The position numbers and the translations under genes are program-made. Under the pieces are notes generated by a model. That model saw nothing but the letters and a program-made list of their open reading frames with translations. It searched no databases and was not told where the DNA came from. From positions 1 through 64,000 of the IMG/VR virus record IMGVR_UViG_3300020156_000028: a stretch of DNA of 64,000 nucleotides; one strand, 5' to 3'. Below are positions 12,162 through 59,873 of this stretch, one piece after another (the first letter of the stretch is position 1; each line of letters opens with the position of its first letter). The stretch is from a virus.

Positions 12162-14274
12162 ATCCATCGAAGACATGGTGGTCGCGGCGGCCGAGGGCGT
12201 CCGGCCCTCCGAACGCCTGACTGTCAGCGAAGCCACGGCCAAGTATCGCATGCTGCGGAACGTCGGCTCCTACGAAGGTCCGTGGCTGAACGAGACCACG
12301 CCGTACCTCGTGGAGCCCATGGACGAGACCACGAACGACCTCTACTCGACGGTGTGCTTTGTCGGCCCGGCTCAGTGCGGCAAGACCGACATGTTCCTGA
12401 ACTACCTGACCTACAAGGTGATCTGCGATCCCGGCGACATCATGCTCGTGCAGACGGCGCAGAGCACGGCGCGCGACTTTTCGATCAGCCGCGTGGACCG
12501 CCTTCATCGCGCGACCGAGGCCGTCGGATCGCGGGTCATCAACGATAACGTCTATGACAAGCGGTATCGCAACGGCATGCTCCTGCGCATGGTCTGGCCT
12601 TCGATCAACGAACTGTCTGGCCGCCCGGTCCCGGTGGTCTGGGAGACCGACTACGACCGCATGCCGATGGACGTTGACGGCGAAGGCACACCATTCAGGC
12701 TTGGCGCGGCGCGCACCACCTCGTTCGGCCGCAACGGCAAGGTGATCGTGGAATCATCGCCGGGCTTTATCGTGGACAACCCGCAATGGATTCCCGCGAC
12801 GAACCACGAGGCCCCGCCGTGCGAGGGCATCTTGTCGATCTACAACTCCGGCGACCGGCGGCGCTGGTATTGGCAATGCGTGTCCTGCCGTAATTCCTTT
12901 GAGCCCCACCGCTCGCTCTTGTCTTGGGAGAACTCGGAAGACCCTATCGAGTGCGGCGAGACGGCCCGGATTACCTGTCCGCATTGCGAGCAGCGCTACT
13001 ACGAGACCGATACCGACGTGCCGGGCAAGGCGGGCATGAACCAGTTGGTGGAGTGGGGCGGGCAGGCCCGGTGGGTGAAGGATGGCATGCTCTGGACCAA
13101 GGAAGGGCTGATCGGAAAGCCGTTCCGGTCCAAGGTCGCGTCGTTCTGGCTTATGGGGGTCGCCGCGACCTTCGCCAACTGGAGCGGGTTGGTGCAGGAC
13201 TATCTTGCGGCCGAGAAGGAATATGCCGAGACCAGTTCCGAGAACACCCTCAAGGCGGTGATCAACACCAAGTTCGGCGAGCCCTACAAGCCCAAGGCCC
13301 AGACGTTCGCGCGCCTGCCGGAGATGCTTCGCTCGCGCGCTCGCGACTACGGCATCCGGGTCGTCCCGCACGGTGTCCGGTTCCTCGTCGCGACTATCGA
13401 CGTGCAGAAAAACCGTTTCGTGGTGCAGGTCCACGGCGTCGGGACGGAGGATGTCTGGGTGGTGGACCGCTACGAGATCAAGTATTCGAAGCGCGAACAG
13501 CCGGACAACCCCGGCCAGCTTCAATATGTCAACGCAGCGGCCTTCCCGGAAGACTGGCGGCTGATCGCGACCGAGGTCATGCGCAAGTCCTACCCGCTGG
13601 CCGACGATCCCGACCGGCACATGGCGATCTGGCAGACCTTCTCGGATTCCGGTGGTGCCGAGGGCGTGACTTCGAACGCCTACGACTTCGTGCGGTGGCT
13701 GCGCTACGGTTACGAGGGTTCCGAGGAGTCGGTCGAGATGCAGGAGAAGTATCCGTGGTTCCCGCATCTGGCGGCACGTTTCCATCTCCTCAAGGGCGAA
13801 CCCAAACTGGATGCCCCGCGCATCCGGGTCGGCTTCCCTGACAGCGAGCGCAAGGACCGGCACGCGGGCGCGCGCGGCGAAATCCCGGTCATGTTCATCA
13901 ATTCGAACATGATGAAAGATACCGTGGACGGCATCTTGGACCGCACGGAGCCCGGCGGCCGGGTGAATTTCCCGGATTGGCTTCCGATCAATTTCTACAA
14001 GGAATTGACAGTCGAGAGCAAAGACCCCAAAACGATGAAGTGGGCTAACCCTCACAAGTATCGCAACGAATCATGGGATTTGTTGGTATATCTCTATGCC
14101 GGGCTCTTGCATCGGACAATCAGTTGGGAGCATATCTCGTGGGATAACCCGCCCACATGGGCGGCCGAGTGGGATCGGAACGATATGATCTTCACGGTCA
14201 ATGAGGCAATGCCCATGGATCAGGAGACCGACACCGGCCCCGATCTTGCGGCTCTTGGCGAACTGCTTGGGTGA
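12145..14274 (+). CDS. terminase large subunit, GpA family
   Basis: A 709-residue packaging motor. The N-terminal ATPase has Walker A GPAQCGKT (K80) and a Walker-B region PVPVVWETDYDRM. A zinc-ribbon-like insert carries CVSCRNSF and CPHCEQRYY. The C-terminal nuclease domain starts with FLVATIDVQKNRF (catalytic D). This layout is that of lambda gpA, so the phage probably cuts at a specific cos-type site. The N-terminus overlaps the small subunit gene by 17 bp. Confidence 0.95.
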   Translation: MLNTFESIEDMVVAAAEGVRPSERLTVSEATAKYRMLRNVGSYEGPWLNETTPYLVEPMDETTNDLYSTVCFVGPAQCGKTDMFLNYLTYKVICDPGDIMLVQTAQSTARDFSISRVDRLHRATEAVGSRVINDNVYDKRYRNGMLLRMVWPSINELSGRPVPVVWETDYDRMPMDVDGEGTPFRLGAARTTSFGRNGKVIVESSPGFIVDNPQWIPATNHEAPPCEGILSIYNSGDRRRWYWQCVSCRNSFEPHRSLLSWENSEDPIECGETARITCPHCEQRYYETDTDVPGKAGMNQLVEWGGQARWVKDGMLWTKEGLIGKPFRSKVASFWLMGVAATFANWSGLVQDYLAAEKEYAETSSENTLKAVINTKFGEPYKPKAQTFARLPEMLRSRARDYGIRVVPHGVRFLVATIDVQKNRFVVQVHGVGTEDVWVVDRYEIKYSKREQPDNPGQLQYVNAAAFPEDWRLIATEVMRKSYPLADDPDRHMAIWQTFSDSGGAEGVTSNAYDFVRWLRYGYEGSEESVEMQEKYPWFPHLAARFHLLKGEPKLDAPRIRVGFPDSERKDRHAGARGEIPVMFINSNMMKDTVDGILDRTEPGGRVNFPDWLPINFYKELTVESKDPKTMKWANPHKYRNESWDLLVYLYAGLLHRTISWEHISWDNPPTWAAEWDRNDMIFTVNEAMPMDQETDTGPDLAALGELLG

Positions 14275-14277
14275 TTG

Positions 14278-14496
14278 ATGGCGACGAAAGAACAATTGAC
14301 CGCATGGCTGGCCGACGCAGAAGAGCAGTACCACATGCTCTCGACCGGCCGAGCCGTGCGGGTCTTCGTTGACCAGAACGGCGAGCGTATCGAGTATGGA
14401 ACCGGGTCGCTCCTCCAGCTTTCGAAGTACATCGCCGAACTGAAACGCCAGCTTGGGCTTGTCACCGTGAGCGGCCCTCTGAATGTGTGGATGTAA
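14278..14496 (+). CDS. head-tail joining protein, gpW-like
   Basis: A 72-residue protein. The ATG at 14278 is preferred to a TTG three bases before it. Size, position between large terminase and portal, and the sequence (AWLADAEEQYHMLSTGRAVR, then LLQLSKYIAELKRQLG) match lambda gpW, a small protein that plugs the portal ring after DNA packaging and is needed for tail attachment. The stop overlaps the portal start (TAATG). Confidence 0.85.
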   Translation: MATKEQLTAWLADAEEQYHMLSTGRAVRVFVDQNGERIEYGTGSLLQLSKYIAELKRQLGLVTVSGPLNVWM

Positions 14497-16145
14497 TGGA
14501 TCAGCTTAGTGCAGAAATCGTCCGCGACATCGAAGCCGTAGTCGGCCCGGTCGGCAAGGACATGGCTATCGGCGGGGCCTACGAAGGCACCGACCGTTTC
14601 GACCGTAGCATGGCGACATGGGCTCCTCCTATCCAGTCAGTGGACGCCGACATCATCCCGATCAAACAGACCGCCGACGCGCGTGTCAACGATCTGGCCC
14701 GCAATGACGGCTACGTGCAGTCGGGCATGGAGATCAACAAGAACTCCATCGTCGGCTCCATGTACCTCCTCAATTCGAAGCCCGAGCTTCGGGTTCTCGG
14801 TCTGGACGACCAGTGGGCCACGGAGTTTCAGGAGGAGGTCGAGGCCAAATTCACCCTCGGCGCGGAGAGCGTAAATTGCTGGCTGGACGCCGCCCGCAAG
14901 CAGACTTTCACAAGCCTGATCCGTATGGCAATCGGATCGGTCGCTGCGACCGGCGAAATGCTGGCGACGGCCGAATGGCTCCGGGCAACGGAGCGGCCGT
15001 TCCGCACGGCGGTTCAGATGATCGACCCGGCCCGGCTCCACACCCCGTTCCACCGCCTGCCGGACAAGAACATCCGGGGCGGCGTGCAGATGGACCGCTA
15101 CGGCGCGCCTATCGGATACTGGATCAAGGACAACCCGGCGCAAGGTCTAACATTCCCGATGACTGGCGGCATGGACGAAGCGAAGTTCATCCCGGCCCGA
15201 AAGCCGTGGGGCCGCCGTCAGGTGATCCATATCGTGGAGCAACGCCGTCCGCATCAGACGCGCGGGATCGCCGATATGGTGGCCGGTCTGATGGAGACCA
15301 AGATCGCCAAGCAGTTTCGCAAGGTGACGCTCCAGAACGCGGTCACGGGGGCCATGTTCGCCGCGACCATCGAGTCCGAGCTTCCGGCGGAAGCCGTCTA
15401 CGCGCAGCTTGGCTCCGGCAACGTGTCTCCGGGCGCGGCCGCCGGAACCTTCGGCGCGGACTATCTCAAGGCGGTCGCCCAGTACGCCGCCTCGGCCAAG
15501 GGCCTCCAGATCGACGGCGTGAAAATCCCGCACCTCTTCCCCGGCACGAAGTTTCAGCTTCGCCCCGTCGGCACGCCCGGCGGCGTCGGACAGGAGTTCG
15601 AACAGTCCTTGATCCGTTACACGGCGGCGCTCCTCGGTATCAGCTACGAGCAGCTTTCCAAGGATTACTCCAAGACCAACTATTCGAGCATGAAGGGCGG
15701 CATCAACGAAACCTTCAAGTTCATGATGTCGCGCAAGAAGGCGGTCGCCGATATGTTCGCGACCATCGTCTTCATGCTTTGGTTCGAAGAGATGATCGGC
15801 CGTGGCGAGATCGAAGCCATGAAGTACAGCCGCGCGCCGAACTATTACGAGCCGTTGATGGCGGAAGCCTATTGCCAGTGTGATTGGATTGGTGCCTCGC
15901 GCGGCCAGATTGACGAACTCAAGGAAACGCAGGCCGCGATCCTGCGCATCCGCTCCGGCCTGTCTACGTGGGAAGACGAGCTTGGCCGTCTCGGCAAGGA
16001 CTGGCGCAAGGTGTTCCAGCAGCTTGAGCGCGAGCAGAAAGAGATCAAGGATCGCGAGATCATGCTCGCCGACGATCCGGGGGCTATCGCCGCCGAGCGC
16101 GAGGCCAATGAAGAGAACGTAGGAACGGCAGGGTCCAATGGCTAA
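14496..16145 (+). CDS. portal protein, lambda gpB family
   Basis: A 549-residue protein; ATG at 14496 overlaps the gpW stop. It forms the dodecameric ring at one capsid vertex through which DNA passes. Family hallmarks include ARNDGYVQSGMEINKNSIVG near the N-terminus, the RRQVIHIVEQRRPHQTRGI motif in the middle, and the long helical C-terminal region with YEQLSKDYSKTNYSSMKGG. The C-terminal clip region is followed by acidic residues. It lies between gpW and the S49 protease exactly as in lambda. Confidence 0.93.
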   Translation: MDQLSAEIVRDIEAVVGPVGKDMAIGGAYEGTDRFDRSMATWAPPIQSVDADIIPIKQTADARVNDLARNDGYVQSGMEINKNSIVGSMYLLNSKPELRVLGLDDQWATEFQEEVEAKFTLGAESVNCWLDAARKQTFTSLIRMAIGSVAATGEMLATAEWLRATERPFRTAVQMIDPARLHTPFHRLPDKNIRGGVQMDRYGAPIGYWIKDNPAQGLTFPMTGGMDEAKFIPARKPWGRRQVIHIVEQRRPHQTRGIADMVAGLMETKIAKQFRKVTLQNAVTGAMFAATIESELPAEAVYAQLGSGNVSPGAAAGTFGADYLKAVAQYAASAKGLQIDGVKIPHLFPGTKFQLRPVGTPGGVGQEFEQSLIRYTAALLGISYEQLSKDYSKTNYSSMKGGINETFKFMMSRKKAVADMFATIVFMLWFEEMIGRGEIEAMKYSRAPNYYEPLMAEAYCQCDWIGASRGQIDELKETQAAILRIRSGLSTWEDELGRLGKDWRKVFQQLEREQKEIKDREIMLADDPGAIAAEREANEENVGTAGSNG

Positions 16146-50053: not shown

Positions 50054-50602
50054 TCATTCGCACGGTGCGTGCTTGCCGCCACCGAACACGTATTCCCGCC
50101 ATGCGATCCAGCACCATCGGCCGTCCCGATGCTTGAGAAAGCCCCACGGCCTCTTCTTGCCGGATCGCCAGACGATGGTCACGACGCGACCGGGGCCGGA
50201 GTCGGTGTGCTTGCCGTACCATTTTCCGAGGACGCGATGACAATGCTCGGCCGGGCGGAAGCTCAAGCGCCAAGCCGGGACGACGTTTCTGGAACATGCC
50301 GGGTTCTTCTCGTCGGCGAGGAAGACGACGGTCTGCTCTCGCCCTAAGAACGCGAGATCGGGGTTGGCCACCTCTTCGACATAGGCCGTCAGCGGGAACG
50401 TCCAGAAATCCCACGGGTGGTCATGGCAGTCCGGGTCCTGATCGCCCCGGTAGAAGATATGCAGGCGCAGGCGGCCGATCCAGTAGCGCGTCATGTAGGG
50501 GGTCGCGTGCTCGTCTTCCTTGCCGTAGACGACGCTGCGGCCCCAGAGCCGGTCGCTGCTTGTGGTCTGTTTCTTCGCCGATTCCTCGAAAGCCGTCTTC
50601 AT
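50054..50602 (-). CDS. hypothetical cupin-like protein
   Basis: A 182-residue protein with a beta-barrel-like pattern and clustered histidines and acids (LRLHIFYRGDQDPDCHDHPW, then SFRPAEHCHRVLG) at places expected for a cupin metal site. Similar proteins are widespread in phages, where their function is unknown. The stop is followed at once by the HNH gene. Confidence 0.65.
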   Translation of the reverse strand: MKTAFEESAKKQTTSSDRLWGRSVVYGKEDEHATPYMTRYWIGRLRLHIFYRGDQDPDCHDHPWDFWTFPLTAYVEEVANPDLAFLGREQTVVFLADEKNPACSRNVVPAWRLSFRPAEHCHRVLGKWYGKHTDSGPGRVVTIVWRSGKKRPWGFLKHRDGRWCWIAWREYVFGGGKHAPCE

Positions 50603-52753: not shown

Positions 52754-52944
52754 TCGTCTTCCTCGATCCGGTAGCCCTGCCTCGGGTTGCCGTACTTTTC
52801 GGAATACCATCGGCAAGGGCGATTGCAGTCGCCCACGCCTTTCATGTTCCAGCGGGTCTCCATGATCCGCTTGGCCTCGGCCGCGAGGGCACGAGGGTCT
52901 TTCTCCGGGCTGTACATTTCCAGCATGGCCTCCGGCTCTACCAT
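52750..52944 (-). CDS. small hypothetical protein
   Basis: A 64-residue protein (MVEPEAMLEMYSPEKDPRAL) with two cysteines in GDCNRPCRWYSEKYG. The ATG lies inside the last codons of the 26-residue membrane peptide gene. The end overlaps the -35 box of the next promoter. Function unknown. Confidence 0.6.
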   Translation of the reverse strand: MVEPEAMLEMYSPEKDPRALAAEAKRIMETRWNMKGVGDCNRPCRWYSEKYGNPRQGYRIEEDD

Positions 52945-53018
52945 GGCGCAAGCACCAGTAGGGCCAGAAAGATCACGGTGGCGACGGCCAGCAGAATCCG
53001 GGCTTGATTACTCGTCAT
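52938..53018 (-). CDS. 26-residue membrane peptide
   Basis: Encodes MTSNQARILLAVATVIFLAL followed by LVLAPW. A short hydrophilic start precedes one transmembrane helix. Its ATG lies in the final codons of the TopoVI-A-like gene and its stop overlaps the next ATG, so it fills an otherwise empty gap with translational coupling on both sides. Small single-span peptides of this kind act in phages as inhibitors, holins or accessory subunits. No specific role can be given. Confidence 0.6.
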   Translation of the reverse strand: MTSNQARILLAVATVIFLALLVLAPW

Positions 53019-53931
53019 CCTCGTTGTCCAGCGTATCGAGATAGCGCTTCACGGCATCCCAGTTTTCATAGGCAGCGACCAGCGATTCCCGGTTCTCCTG
53101 TTCCTCGTCCATGGAGGCTTCCCAAGCGTCTTCGTCCCGGACGTTGATAAGCTCCTCTTGGATCAAGTCCTGCAACACCTCGGGGTCGAGCGCGTCAAGC
53201 TCCCACGATTCCGAGCCGAACTCTTCCTCGTAGCGCGTGAAACGGCTGTCCGTGTCCTTGGCCGGGTTCGGGGGCGGGTTGTACTCTTCGATCTGATCCA
53301 TGTTCAAGGCCAAGCGCCGAACTTCCACGAAGCCCCGACTAAAAAGCTCCAACCGGGTCGCGGCGTCGTTCGGCATGTGGATGCCCGACGGGTCGTGGTC
53401 GCCCAGATAGAACACGACTGGCCGGAACCCGGCCCGGCGTTGCGCCTGAAAGCGCTTTCCGGCGGCATAGATTTCAGACTGGCTGGCGTATCCCCGGCAG
53501 GCGAAGTAGGGCACGCGAAGGTCTTCGCAGATGGATTCGATCACGCCCATCAGAGCGTCCTTTTCGATCCACACCTCGGGCCGGTATCTCTGTTTCAGCC
53601 ACGGGTTTTCCTTGTACTGGTCAGCTACGACGCGCAAGATTTCCGCCGGGCTTGACCATGCACTCGGGTATTTGACATTGCGGGTGCGATCCTCAATCGT
53701 GCTCCAGTCGATAAGACCCGCCTGCCGGGCTTCGTCAATTATGGTCCCGAGCCGCTTGTACTCGGACTGCTTGTTCGGCAGGATGTCGCGCGCCACGAAC
53801 TGGTAGTAAAGCTGGCGCAGGGTCAGGGTGAAGCCGCGCCGCTGGTAGTCCGTGGTGATTTCGACCGCATGCTGGATGATGTCGAGCGTCTTTTGCTGAA
53901 AATTCTTGTCGATGAATTTCTCGATAGCCAT
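53008..53931 (-). CDS. Spo11/TopoVI-A-like protein (stand-alone TOPRIM protein)
   Basis: A 307-residue protein. The N-terminal winged-helix region has FTLTLRQLYYQFVARDI; Tyr42-Tyr43 lie where Spo11/TopoVI-A keeps its catalytic tyrosine (R-x-x-YY). The C-terminal TOPRIM domain has Glu123 (VWIEKDAL) and Asp178-x-Asp180 (YLGDHDPSG), the metal-binding set. The protein is shorter than topoisomerase VI-A, and I see no TopoVI-B (ATPase) gene in the window. Orphan TopoVI-A-like proteins (Mini-A type) are known from mobile elements. It may make DNA breaks in the host or phage genome, or help recombination. A catalytic role is inference. Confidence 0.8.
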   Translation of the reverse strand: MAIEKFIDKNFQQKTLDIIQHAVEITTDYQRRGFTLTLRQLYYQFVARDILPNKQSEYKRLGTIIDEARQAGLIDWSTIEDRTRNVKYPSAWSSPAEILRVVADQYKENPWLKQRYRPEVWIEKDALMGVIESICEDLRVPYFACRGYASQSEIYAAGKRFQAQRRAGFRPVVFYLGDHDPSGIHMPNDAATRLELFSRGFVEVRRLALNMDQIEEYNPPPNPAKDTDSRFTRYEEEFGSESWELDALDPEVLQDLIQEELINVRDEDAWEASMDEEQENRESLVAAYENWDAVKRYLDTLDNEDDE

Positions 53932-53942
53932 TGAGGGCTCCG

Positions 53943-54038
53943 TTACGTCAGGAAGTAGAAGGCCGCGCCGAGGACGATCCCGAGGGCGGCGAGTGTGAGG
54001 ATGATGGCGTTGGCTTTGATCACGATTTCTGTCTCCAT
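53943..54038 (-). CDS. 31-residue membrane peptide
   Basis: Encodes METEIVIKANAIILTLAALG followed by IVLGAAFYFLT: one transmembrane helix with a short acidic N-terminus. The start overlaps the end of the upstream gene and no clear ribosome binding site precedes it. It is the second tiny membrane peptide flanking the TopoVI-A-like gene. Confidence 0.5.
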   Translation of the reverse strand: METEIVIKANAIILTLAALGIVLGAAFYFLT

Positions 54039-56996: not shown

Positions 56997-58094
56997 TTAC
57001 TTGACCGCCACGAGGTCGAGAAGCTTGCCAGCCTCGCGCTCCAGTTCCACGCGCTCGTCCTGAAACTGGATCGACTTGGCGTGGGCGGTGAGGCCGGTCA
57101 CGACATCCCAGAGGGTTTCGACCGGGCGGTCTTCCTCGCGCTCGTGGGCGGCCTTGATCAGCGTGGACATGCGGCCCGTGAAGCGCTTCTGCATGAAGGC
57201 GTCGAGGTCGTCGCCGAGCTTCTTTTCCTGCGCCGCCTTGATCGTCTCTTCAATCGGCTTGGCGAGCGCGTTCGAATACTCGGTCAGGACCGGCGTGATC
57301 TCCTCCAGCCAGCGGTCGGGCGCGGAGACGGTGTGGCGGATACGGATTTCCTTGAAGTCCTGCGCGCCCCAGACGATCCGGTTGCAGCACGCATAGTCGA
57401 ACAGGAAGAACGCCGCGCCGAGCGACTTGTCGCCGACTTCCGAGTTCCAGATGAAGAAGCCGCGCGCCAGCGTGCCGCTCTCGCCGTTGCGGCGATTGTT
57501 GACCGAGACCCGGTTCTTCTCGTCGGCGAGGAAGACGAACATGTCGCGATCCGAGGCGAACAGCGTCGTGTTGTCCTTGGTGATCGGCACGTCCTTGCCG
57601 AACTCGCCCGGCACCTTCCAGTCGCCGGTCACGCCGTCGCCGAACTTGTCGCGCAGGGCACCGACGATTTCCGAGTTCCAGACGCGGCCGTAGCGCGGGC
57701 CGGTGGCGGCCGTGACCATGGTCTCGGGCTCGTAGGTCAGGATGCCGACTTCCTCGGCGTCACGGTTGAACCGCATGGAGTAGTTCAGGGCATCGCAGGC
57801 GATGGGAGCGGCCAGCGTGCGCAGAAACCCGGCCGGAGCCTTGGCGAGCGCGGCGGCCTGACCGAACGACCAGTGATTCACGTCGTTCACGTCGCCGTTG
57901 ACGGCCACCTTGAGACCCTTGAAGGTCTTGTCGTTCTCGTCCGGCACGAACTCGATCCGGCGCGTCGAGGCGACACGGCCGACCGAATTGTCACGGATAT
58001 GGTGGGTCTTGTCGAAGAGGGCGTCCAGCGAGGTGAAGCGCTCGTCGCTCGGACGAGTGGCCCACTGGTGGGAAGCGTGCATGAGAGTTGCCAT
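56997..58094 (-). CDS. DUF932 phage/plasmid-like protein
   Basis: A 365-residue protein; AGGAG lies 8 nt before the ATG at 58094. It matches the DUF932 family: an N-terminal region with RIEFVPDENDKTFKGLKVAV and HWSFGQAAALAKAPAGFLRT, a middle with MVTAATGPRYGRVWNSEIVG and SDRDMFVFLADEKNRVSVNN, and RGFFIWNSEVGDKSLGAAFF. The family is common in phages and plasmids and expressed early; its function is not established. It is the first gene after promoter 58137-58165. Confidence 0.9.
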   Translation of the reverse strand: MATLMHASHQWATRPSDERFTSLDALFDKTHHIRDNSVGRVASTRRIEFVPDENDKTFKGLKVAVNGDVNDVNHWSFGQAAALAKAPAGFLRTLAAPIACDALNYSMRFNRDAEEVGILTYEPETMVTAATGPRYGRVWNSEIVGALRDKFGDGVTGDWKVPGEFGKDVPITKDNTTLFASDRDMFVFLADEKNRVSVNNRRNGESGTLARGFFIWNSEVGDKSLGAAFFLFDYACCNRIVWGAQDFKEIRIRHTVSAPDRWLEEITPVLTEYSNALAKPIEETIKAAQEKKLGDDLDAFMQKRFTGRMSTLIKAAHEREEDRPVETLWDVVTGLTAHAKSIQFQDERVELEREAGKLLDLVAVK

Positions 58095-58136
58095 TGGTCG
58101 TCTCCTGTCAGGGTTGTCGGGTCTGGCCCGGCCCCT

Positions 58137-58165
58137 TCTATAGTCCCAACTTTCCGTTGGCACAA
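58137..58165 (-). promoter_or_regulatory. promoter with CCAAC-TTTCC-GTTGG operator in the spacer
   Basis: Minus-strand TTGTGC (58160-58165), 17 bp, TATAGA (58137-58142). The perfect operator (58146-58160) fills the spacer. It lies just after the terminator of the preceding transcript and drives the DUF932 gene. Confidence 0.8.
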
Positions 58166-58196
58166 TAGGAAATCGACATTCTGGAAAATATTTTTT

Positions 58197-58227
58197 AAAA
58201 AACCCCCGGAACCGGGGTTCCGAGGGT
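58197..58227 (-). terminator. rho-independent terminator
   Basis: ACCCTCGGAACC pairs with GGTTCCGGGGGT (one mismatch) and is followed by six U residues on the minus strand. It ends the transcript of the gene 58281-58559. Confidence 0.82.
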
Positions 58228-58280
58228 TTCAGTTTCACTGAGGGTCAATTCAAGGAGGTTGCGATGCTCCGATTCCAAGA

Positions 58281-59547: not shown

Positions 59548-59638
59548 CCGTTAAGGTTAACCGTTAGGGTTAAGAATTAAGGTTAACGCGGGGTTAACGT
59601 TAAGGCTTTGGTAAGGTTACGAATTAAGGTTAACCCGG
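59548..59638. repeat. GTTAA-rich repeat block
   Basis: Contains GAATTAAGGTTAAC-[GC]-CGG twice (59574-59591 and 59621-59638), plus further AAGGTTAAC, GGGTTAA and CGTTAA words and several GTTAAC palindromes. It is a local AT-rich island in a GC-rich setting, next to the tandem array. Such an arrangement recalls replication origins. Confidence 0.6.
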
Positions 59639-59670: not shown

Positions 59671-59873
59671 CCCGGTCTCCCGGCTGGCGGTTGCCCGGTC
59701 TCCCGGCTCCCGGCTGGCGGTTGCCCGGTCTCCCGGCTGGCGGTTGCCCGGTCTCCCGGTTGCCGGTTGCCCGGTCTCCCGGCTGGCGGTTGCCCGGTCT
59801 CCCGGTTGCCGGTTGCCCGGTCTCCCGGCTGGCGGTTGCCCGGTCTCCCGGTTGCCGGTTGCCCGGTCTCCCG
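59671..59873. repeat. 23-bp tandem repeat array, 8.5 copies
   Basis: Units begin CCCGGTCTCCCGG and continue CTGGCGGTTG (type A) or TTGCCGGTTG (type B). Copies 1-3 are A; copy 2 has a 7-bp insertion. Copies 3-8 alternate A-B-A-B-A-B, so a 46-bp higher-order unit exists. The period is not a multiple of three, and reading frames through it are repetitive artefacts. It is probably a protein-binding array. Confidence 0.85.

What the first reader, a model, noticed from the sequence alone, without database searches (positions are those of the whole stretch)
53008..53931. Stand-alone Spo11/TopoVI-A-like protein with Tyr pair and TOPRIM residues
The R-x-x-YY segment (residues 39-43) and the E123/D178/D180 set match Spo11/TopoVI-A, yet no B subunit is visible in the window. 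Such orphan A-type proteins (Mini-A class) are known from mobile elements, but their biology is largely open. It is flanked by two tiny membrane peptides (52938-53018 and 53943-54038). It could be a nuclease against host DNA or a recombination factor.
Basis: partly seen in the sequence, partly recalled or inferred. Interest (0 to 1): 0.65.

Follow-up and report, generated by a model that had tools for sequence, protein, structure and literature searches.

The report
Phage Mini-A, lone Topo VI-A relative
A bacterial virus carries a compact, stand-alone relative of the DNA-cutting subunit of topoisomerase VI (and of the meiotic break-maker Spo11); it belongs to the described but experimentally uncharacterised 'Mini-A' family, and its complete, invariant active site with no partner subunit makes it a ready test of whether this enzyme type can cut DNA alone.

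Summary
Relatives at 42-64% identity occur in at least 76 phage records, several hundred viral contigs and many bacterial genomes. The published Mini-A exemplar, Pseudomonas phage NP1, matches at 46.5% over 92%, so this is Mini-A. R39, Y43, E123, D178 and D180 are invariant in 146 members. Y42 is Phe in five, so Y43 is the likely nucleophile. A deep-alignment AlphaFold2 model (pLDDT 95.6) has six PDB matches at E<=0.001, all Topo VI A subunits. Profile alignment places the catalytic residues in register with Topo VI-A. No GHKL/transducer B subunit was found in this record or 30 relatives' records. No partner gene recurs beside Mini-A in 153 loci, and the tiny membrane peptides are not a family feature. 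An invariant 'WELDAL' glutamate (E244) is a candidate equivalent of the Topo VI cleavage-restraining E342; Mini-A lacks about 55 N-terminal residues of Topo VI-A. Most likely it is a homodimeric Tyr/TOPRIM DNA-cleaving enzyme acting without B in phage DNA replication/recombination. Activity and role are untested. A new member of a known kind with open biology.

The parts
53008..53931 (-). Mini-A gene, 307 aa (stand-alone Topo VI-A/Spo11-like protein)
   Evidence: PHROG 6247 E 7e-109; 76 phage records; alignment A3 of 146 members
53692..53895 (-). winged-helix (5Y-CAP-like) region, residues 13-80
   Evidence: AF2 model helix/strand order H13-31, short strand, H38-47, H55-70, strand; Foldseek match to Topo VI-A
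53803..53817 (-). R39-Q-L-Y42-Y43 catalytic tyrosine motif; Y43 is the likely nucleophile
   Evidence: R39 and Y43 in 146/146, Y42 in 141/146 with F in 5; in register with the Topo VI-A R-E-x-Y-Y motif
53308..53586 (-). TOPRIM domain, residues 116-208
   Evidence: beta-alpha order E116-122 / H125-137 / E142-144 / H151-166 / E170-176 / H183-198 / E203-208
53563..53565 (-). E123, TOPRIM glutamate (Topo VI-A E202 equivalent)
   Evidence: 146/146; aligned
53392..53400 (-). D178-H-D180, TOPRIM DxD (Topo VI-A D254/D256 equivalent)
   Evidence: 146/146 each; aligned
53200..53202 (-). E244 of the S-W-E-L-D-A-L motif; candidate equivalent of Topo VI-A E342 (clasp and fourth metal ligand)
   Evidence: 146/146; motif similarity to x-E-x-Q/E-A-L of Topo VI-A. 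Not placed by profile alignment, so inference
53014..53184 (-). C-terminal helical extension (residues 250-306), longer than in Topo VI-A
   Evidence: median 57 residues after E244 in Mini-A against 29 after the corresponding Glu in Topo VI-A

Best explanation
The gene encodes a member of the phage Mini-A family, a compact stand-alone version of the Topo VI A subunit. It most likely works as a homodimer. The winged helix of one subunit presents Y43 to the Mg2+-binding TOPRIM pocket (E123/D178/D180, probably with E244) of the other, and the pair attack both DNA strands, leaving 5'-phosphotyrosyl ends with a short stagger, as Topo VI does. Since no B subunit is found in the phage or its relatives, cleavage (and possibly religation) should occur without ATP-driven control, held back by the R39-E244 clasp and released by DNA bending or supercoiling. 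Its use is probably in the phage's own DNA replication/recombination: Spo11-like breaks that feed the phage exonuclease/annealing machinery, or relief of tangles. Shown here: family, fold, invariant catalytic set, absence of a recognisable B and of a fixed partner. Inferred: dimer, chemistry, clasp equivalence, biological role.
For: PHROG and tblastn membership; Mini-A exemplar NP1 named in PMC7614492 and homologous (L033). Catalytic residues invariant in 146 members. Deep AF2 model pLDDT 95.6; the only PDB matches at E<=0.001 are six Topo VI-A chains, 1d3y and 9o0g/9o8p/9o7o. hhalign score 32.8 over 183 columns with the Tyr, Glu and DxD motifs in register, against at most 24.8 in 25 column shuffles and about 18 in reversals. 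No PF02518/PF09239 in 31 records; 17 of 18 genomes bearing Mini-A lack Topo VI-A and 16 of 17 lack Topo VI-B. Neighbours within 3 genes include RecE-like exonuclease and RecT-like annealing proteins, helicases and regulators. The window phage has its own exonuclease, Gp2.5-like ssDNA-binding/annealing protein, DNA polymerase and helicase-primase. Topo VI mechanism: PMC13040014.
Against: No biochemical data. The first, shallow-alignment model gave no Topo VI match. TM-scores of the second are modest (up to 0.39). Pfam Topo VI models match only below cut-off. The E244-E342 equivalence is not placed by the profile alignment. In Topo VI the B subunit drives the tyrosine inward (PMC13040014), so a B-less A may be inert without an unknown partner.
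Confidence: 0.72

Rival explanations
1. A true topoisomerase that relaxes or decatenates phage DNA without ATP and without B, like the ATP-independent relaxation reported for one Topo VIII.
For: All cleavage residues, including the candidate clasp that favours the uncleaved state, are conserved; an ATP-independent Topo VIII is described in PMC7614492.
Against: Strand passage in type IIB enzymes is organised by the B subunit, which is not found here.
Confidence: 0.3
2. A Spo11-like break-maker needing a partner encoded elsewhere: an unrecognised phage protein or a host factor.
For: Spo11 and Topo VI-A work with partners (PMC13040014); several genes beside Mini-A in the window have no family match.
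Against: No gene family recurs beside Mini-A: the commonest is in 16 of 153 loci at scattered positions. Hosts span many bacterial phyla plus one archaeal bin, so a host partner would have to be near-universal.
Confidence: 0.25
3. A nuclease that attacks host DNA.
For: An intact DNA-cleaving active site; lytic phages often degrade host DNA.
Against: Found in many bacterial chromosome contigs and next to repressor/regulator and RecE/RecT-like genes, settings typical of temperate phages, where a host-destroying nuclease is unexpected; no specific evidence.
Confidence: 0.1
4. A counter-defence or decoy protein acting on TOPRIM nucleases such as JetD (Wadjet) or GajA.
For: Weak DUF2399 (JetD-type) similarity in two members.
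Against: Complete conservation of catalytic residues implies catalysis rather than mimicry.
Confidence: 0.04

Closest known systems
Mini-A (type IIB topoisomerase-like proteins of viruses; Takahashi et al. 2020, exemplar Pseudomonas phage NP1)
   Same: Homologous over 92% at 46.5% identity, phage-encoded, no B subunit, catalytic residues conserved
   Different: Nothing that would exclude it; it lies in a clade with alphaproteobacterial and other members, away from the NP1/SPN19 branch
DNA topoisomerase VI, subunit A
   Same: Fold, order and register of R-x-x-x-Y, E, DxD-P-x-G and downstream K/D
   Different: About 55 fewer residues before the catalytic Arg (39 against 94), 25 fewer between DxD and the clasp Glu, about 28 more after it; no B subunit
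Spo11
   Same: R-x-x-[FY]-Y tyrosine motif and TOPRIM acids
   Different: Viral, shorter, no Top6B-like partner found; break formation not tested
JetD/MksG (Wadjet/MksBEFG nuclease, DUF2399)
   Same: TOPRIM domain related to Topo VI-A
   Different: MksG lacks the winged-helix tyrosine (PMC10123090) and works with SMC proteins; Mini-A keeps the tyrosine
Topo VIII
   Same: Type IIB, on mobile elements
   Different: Topo VIII combines A- and B-type parts, usually in one chain that homodimerises; Mini-A has only the A part

Membership tests
Mini-A | Full-length homology to a published Mini-A (Pseudomonas phage NP1) | tested here: met
   46.5% identity over residues 4-284, E 4e-69; same alignment; NP1 named as Mini-A in PMC7614492
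Mini-A | Truncated Top6A homologue encoded by a virus with no B subunit | tested here: met
   Virus record; N-terminal shortening; no PF02518/PF09239
Mini-A | Diagnostic short C-terminal motif of the 2020 paper (recalled from its abstract) | not testable with these tools
   The paper is not held; the invariant S-W-E-L-D-A-L block is a candidate for it
Topo VI | Winged helix with catalytic Tyr plus TOPRIM E/DxD | tested here: met
Topo VI | A2B2 holoenzyme with a GHKL/transducer B subunit | tested here: not met
   No B in own record or 30 related records; controls positive
Topo VI | Score above the Pfam cut-off for TP6A_N | tested here: not met
   12.7 bits against 26
Topo VIII | B-type domains fused to or beside A | tested here: not met
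   307-aa A-type protein only; no GHKL match in the record
Spo11 | Conserved Tyr/TOPRIM catalytic set | tested here: met
Spo11 | Programmed double-strand-break activity | not testable with these tools
   needs biochemistry
JetD/MksG (Wadjet) | DUF2399 domain without winged-helix tyrosine, in an SMC operon | tested here: not met
   Tyr invariant; no PF09664 match for P0001; no recurring neighbour family

The most novel reading that the evidence does not exclude
Mini-A is a self-sufficient, ATP-independent Spo11-type enzyme: a B-less Topo VI-A dimer that makes controlled, protein-linked double-strand breaks in phage DNA to start recombination-dependent replication, using the R39-E244 clasp instead of a B subunit as its only brake.
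Probability: 0.3. Interest if true: 0.75.

Novelty: new member of a known kind. Interest (0 to 1): 0.42.

Why it matters
Topo VI-A and Spo11 are thought to need a B-type partner to bring the tyrosine to DNA. Mini-A is a widespread natural family that keeps every catalytic residue, lacks a recognisable B, and is spread over phages of many bacterial phyla. It is therefore a compact system for asking what the A subunit can do alone and how a phage uses such an enzyme. I found no functional study of it in the library searched.

Tried and rejected
A first AF2 model from 24 sequences (pLDDT 86) gave no Topo VI match in Foldseek, PDB or viral; it was superseded by the 146-sequence model. phmmer/hmmsearch against PDB sequences found no Topo VI: too distant. 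Pfam and NCBIfam gave only sub-threshold matches. A search for a conserved partner gene found none. Membrane peptides as partners were rejected. A low-threshold profile alignment did not place E244 opposite the Topo VI-A clasp Glu, so that equivalence stays an inference. A B subunit supplied by the host was rejected for most hosts: 16 of 17 genomes lack it; the exception, a Phycisphaerae bin, has its own Topo VI A and B. The original Mini-A paper is not held.

Full report
Observation. window:53008-53931 (-) translates to 307 aa in a 64,556-base virus record. The frame is open further upstream, but homologues start at the ATG at 53931 and a GGAG lies just upstream.

Family. PHROGs places the protein in phrog_6247 'DNA topoisomerase' (E 7.1e-109, residues 4-296). 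tblastn finds it in 76 phage records, all under 60% identity, annotated as 'DNA topoisomerase', 'DNA topoisomerase VI', 'DNA binding protein' or hypothetical. One of these, Pseudomonas phage NP1 (46.5% over 92%), is the Mini-A example drawn in a topoisomerase review (PMC7614492), which cites Takahashi et al. 2020 for the family. [quoted passage not shown] PMC11302465 mentions Mini-A as an ancient Topo VI-A/Spo11 homologue in viruses. I found no functional study in the library searched. In a 79-member tree the window protein groups with alphaproteobacterial and myxococcal members, weakly resolved. An alphaproteobacterial host is plausible but not shown.

Catalytic residues. In 146 diverse members R39, Y43, E123, K124, D178, D180, P181, G183, K225, D228, R230 and E244 never vary. 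Y42 is Phe in five, giving R-Q-L-F-Y, like the R-D-x-F-Y form seen in several Topo VI-A proteins fetched here. Y43, four residues after the Arg, is thus the likely nucleophile by position and by conservation. No aligned member has lost a catalytic residue, whereas many Topo VIII are reported to be in states of inactivation (PMC7614492).

Kinship with Topo VI-A. Pfam models of Topo VI-A match only below cut-off: TP6A_N 12.7 bits on the window protein, Toprim E 0.009 and DUF2399 1.6e-4 in other members. I fetched 36 Topo VI-A sequences from genomes in the phyla of a Phycisphaerae and a Nanoarchaeota bin and compared profiles: score 32.8, E 0.0015, 183 columns, with R39/Y43, E123, D178/D180-P-x-G and the downstream P and K/D block all opposite their Topo VI-A counterparts. 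Reversed profiles score about 18, and 25 column shuffles score at most 24.8. A restricted 146-row profile gives 29.4. AlphaFold2 with 146 sequences gives pLDDT 95.6 and pTM 0.86, with a winged-helix-like N-terminal part and a beta-alpha TOPRIM order. The only six PDB matches at E<=0.001 are Topo VI A subunits: 1d3y (8.6e-6) and the 2026 M. mazei DNA complexes, including the cleavage state. The earlier 24-sequence model had given no Topo VI match. TM-scores stay low (0.28-0.39), which I attribute to different domain angles and lengths; this is not proven.

What differs from Topo VI-A. The catalytic Arg is at residue 39 (median), against 94 in Topo VI-A; 64 residues separate the second TOPRIM Asp from the S-W-E-L-D-A-L Glu, against 89; 57 residues follow it, against 29. 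The 2026 Top6 study shows that E342 of Top6A pairs with R102, four residues before Y106, as an electrostatic clasp, and is also part of an acidic tetrad; E342Q makes the enzyme cleavage-prone; and an N-terminal loop (44-67) latches the winged helix to TOPRIM (PMC13040014). By motif (W-E-L-D-A-L against L-E-L-E-A-L or A-E-Q-Q-A-L) E244 is the likely counterpart, and R39 is the R102 counterpart by alignment. Automatic profile alignment does not place E244 there. By length, the N-terminal latch region is missing in Mini-A.

No B subunit, no fixed partner. HATPase_c and Topo-VIb_trans profiles find nothing in the own record or in 30 related records, with positive controls. Some of those records are fragments, but six are complete annotated phages. 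Of 18 genomes carrying Mini-A, 17 lack Topo VI-A; of 17 checked, 16 lack Topo VI-B. In 153 loci no neighbour family recurs: the commonest, a helicase by its sequence, is in 16 loci at scattered offsets. Annotated or detected neighbours are DNA-metabolism and regulatory genes: ThyX, ligase, Sak4 and Cas4-type exonuclease in NP1, polymerase in RDJL Phi 2, RecE/RecT-like pairs, helicases and repressors elsewhere. The window phage itself encodes helicase-primase, DNA polymerase, exonuclease and a Gp2.5-like annealing protein, but more than 40 kb away in the linear record.

Membrane peptides. Both exist next to the gene, but hydrophobic micro-ORFs are not clearly enriched beside Mini-A in relatives. 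The downstream one overlaps the end of the gene by 11 bases, so translational coupling in this phage is possible.

Mechanism. The conserved set predicts Tyr/TOPRIM transesterification with 5'-phosphotyrosyl ends, by analogy with Topo VI. Homodimerisation, stagger, need for a partner and religation are inferred. A role in phage replication/recombination is favoured over host-DNA attack because the gene also sits in bacterial chromosome contigs beside recombination and repressor-type genes. This is circumstantial.

Verdict. Its value lies in the open question of what a B-less Topo VI-A does, now with concrete residue-level tests (Y43F against Y42F, E244Q).

Noticed in passing
L031:5183-7243 (also L032:8549-10609): A Mini-A gene of 687 aa is interrupted by a LAGLIDADG intein (starts CFLPGTP, ends VTHN before Cys) placed at the TOPRIM active-site motif, between the positions of W121 and E123. 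Pfam: LAGLIDADG_3 1.5e-12, Intein_splicing 1e-5.
   Followed up: yes
L037:13792-14676 (Salmonella phage SPN19, NC_019417): The annotated 'DNA topoisomerase' starts at 13921, just after the catalytic Tyr motif; the conserved frame starts at 13792, so the public annotation lacks the nucleophile.
   Followed up: yes
HM151342/NC_015466 (Roseobacter phage RDJL Phi 1), 14385-15250: The Mini-A match falls in two pieces under two annotated genes, suggesting a frameshift, a sequencing error or a split gene.
   Followed up: no
L005:9989-11206: A Mini-A with about 100 extra C-terminal residues, possibly an added domain.
   Followed up: no
window 59548-59587 and 59702-59873: A 13-bp repeat (CCGTTAAGGTTAA, 3.1 copies) next to a 23-bp G+C-rich tandem array (7.5 copies, 92% matches) in a gene-poor stretch; could be an origin or other regulatory repeat.
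   Followed up: no
window 56997-58238 (-): DUF932-type protein (phrog_1362) with 76% DNA identity to Synechococcus virus S-ESS1; the only stretch of 40001-64000 with near DNA matches in known phages.
   Followed up: no
window 50054-50602 (-): Cysteine-dioxygenase-like protein, phrog_4786 E 8e-36, in the same minus-strand gene block.
   Followed up: no
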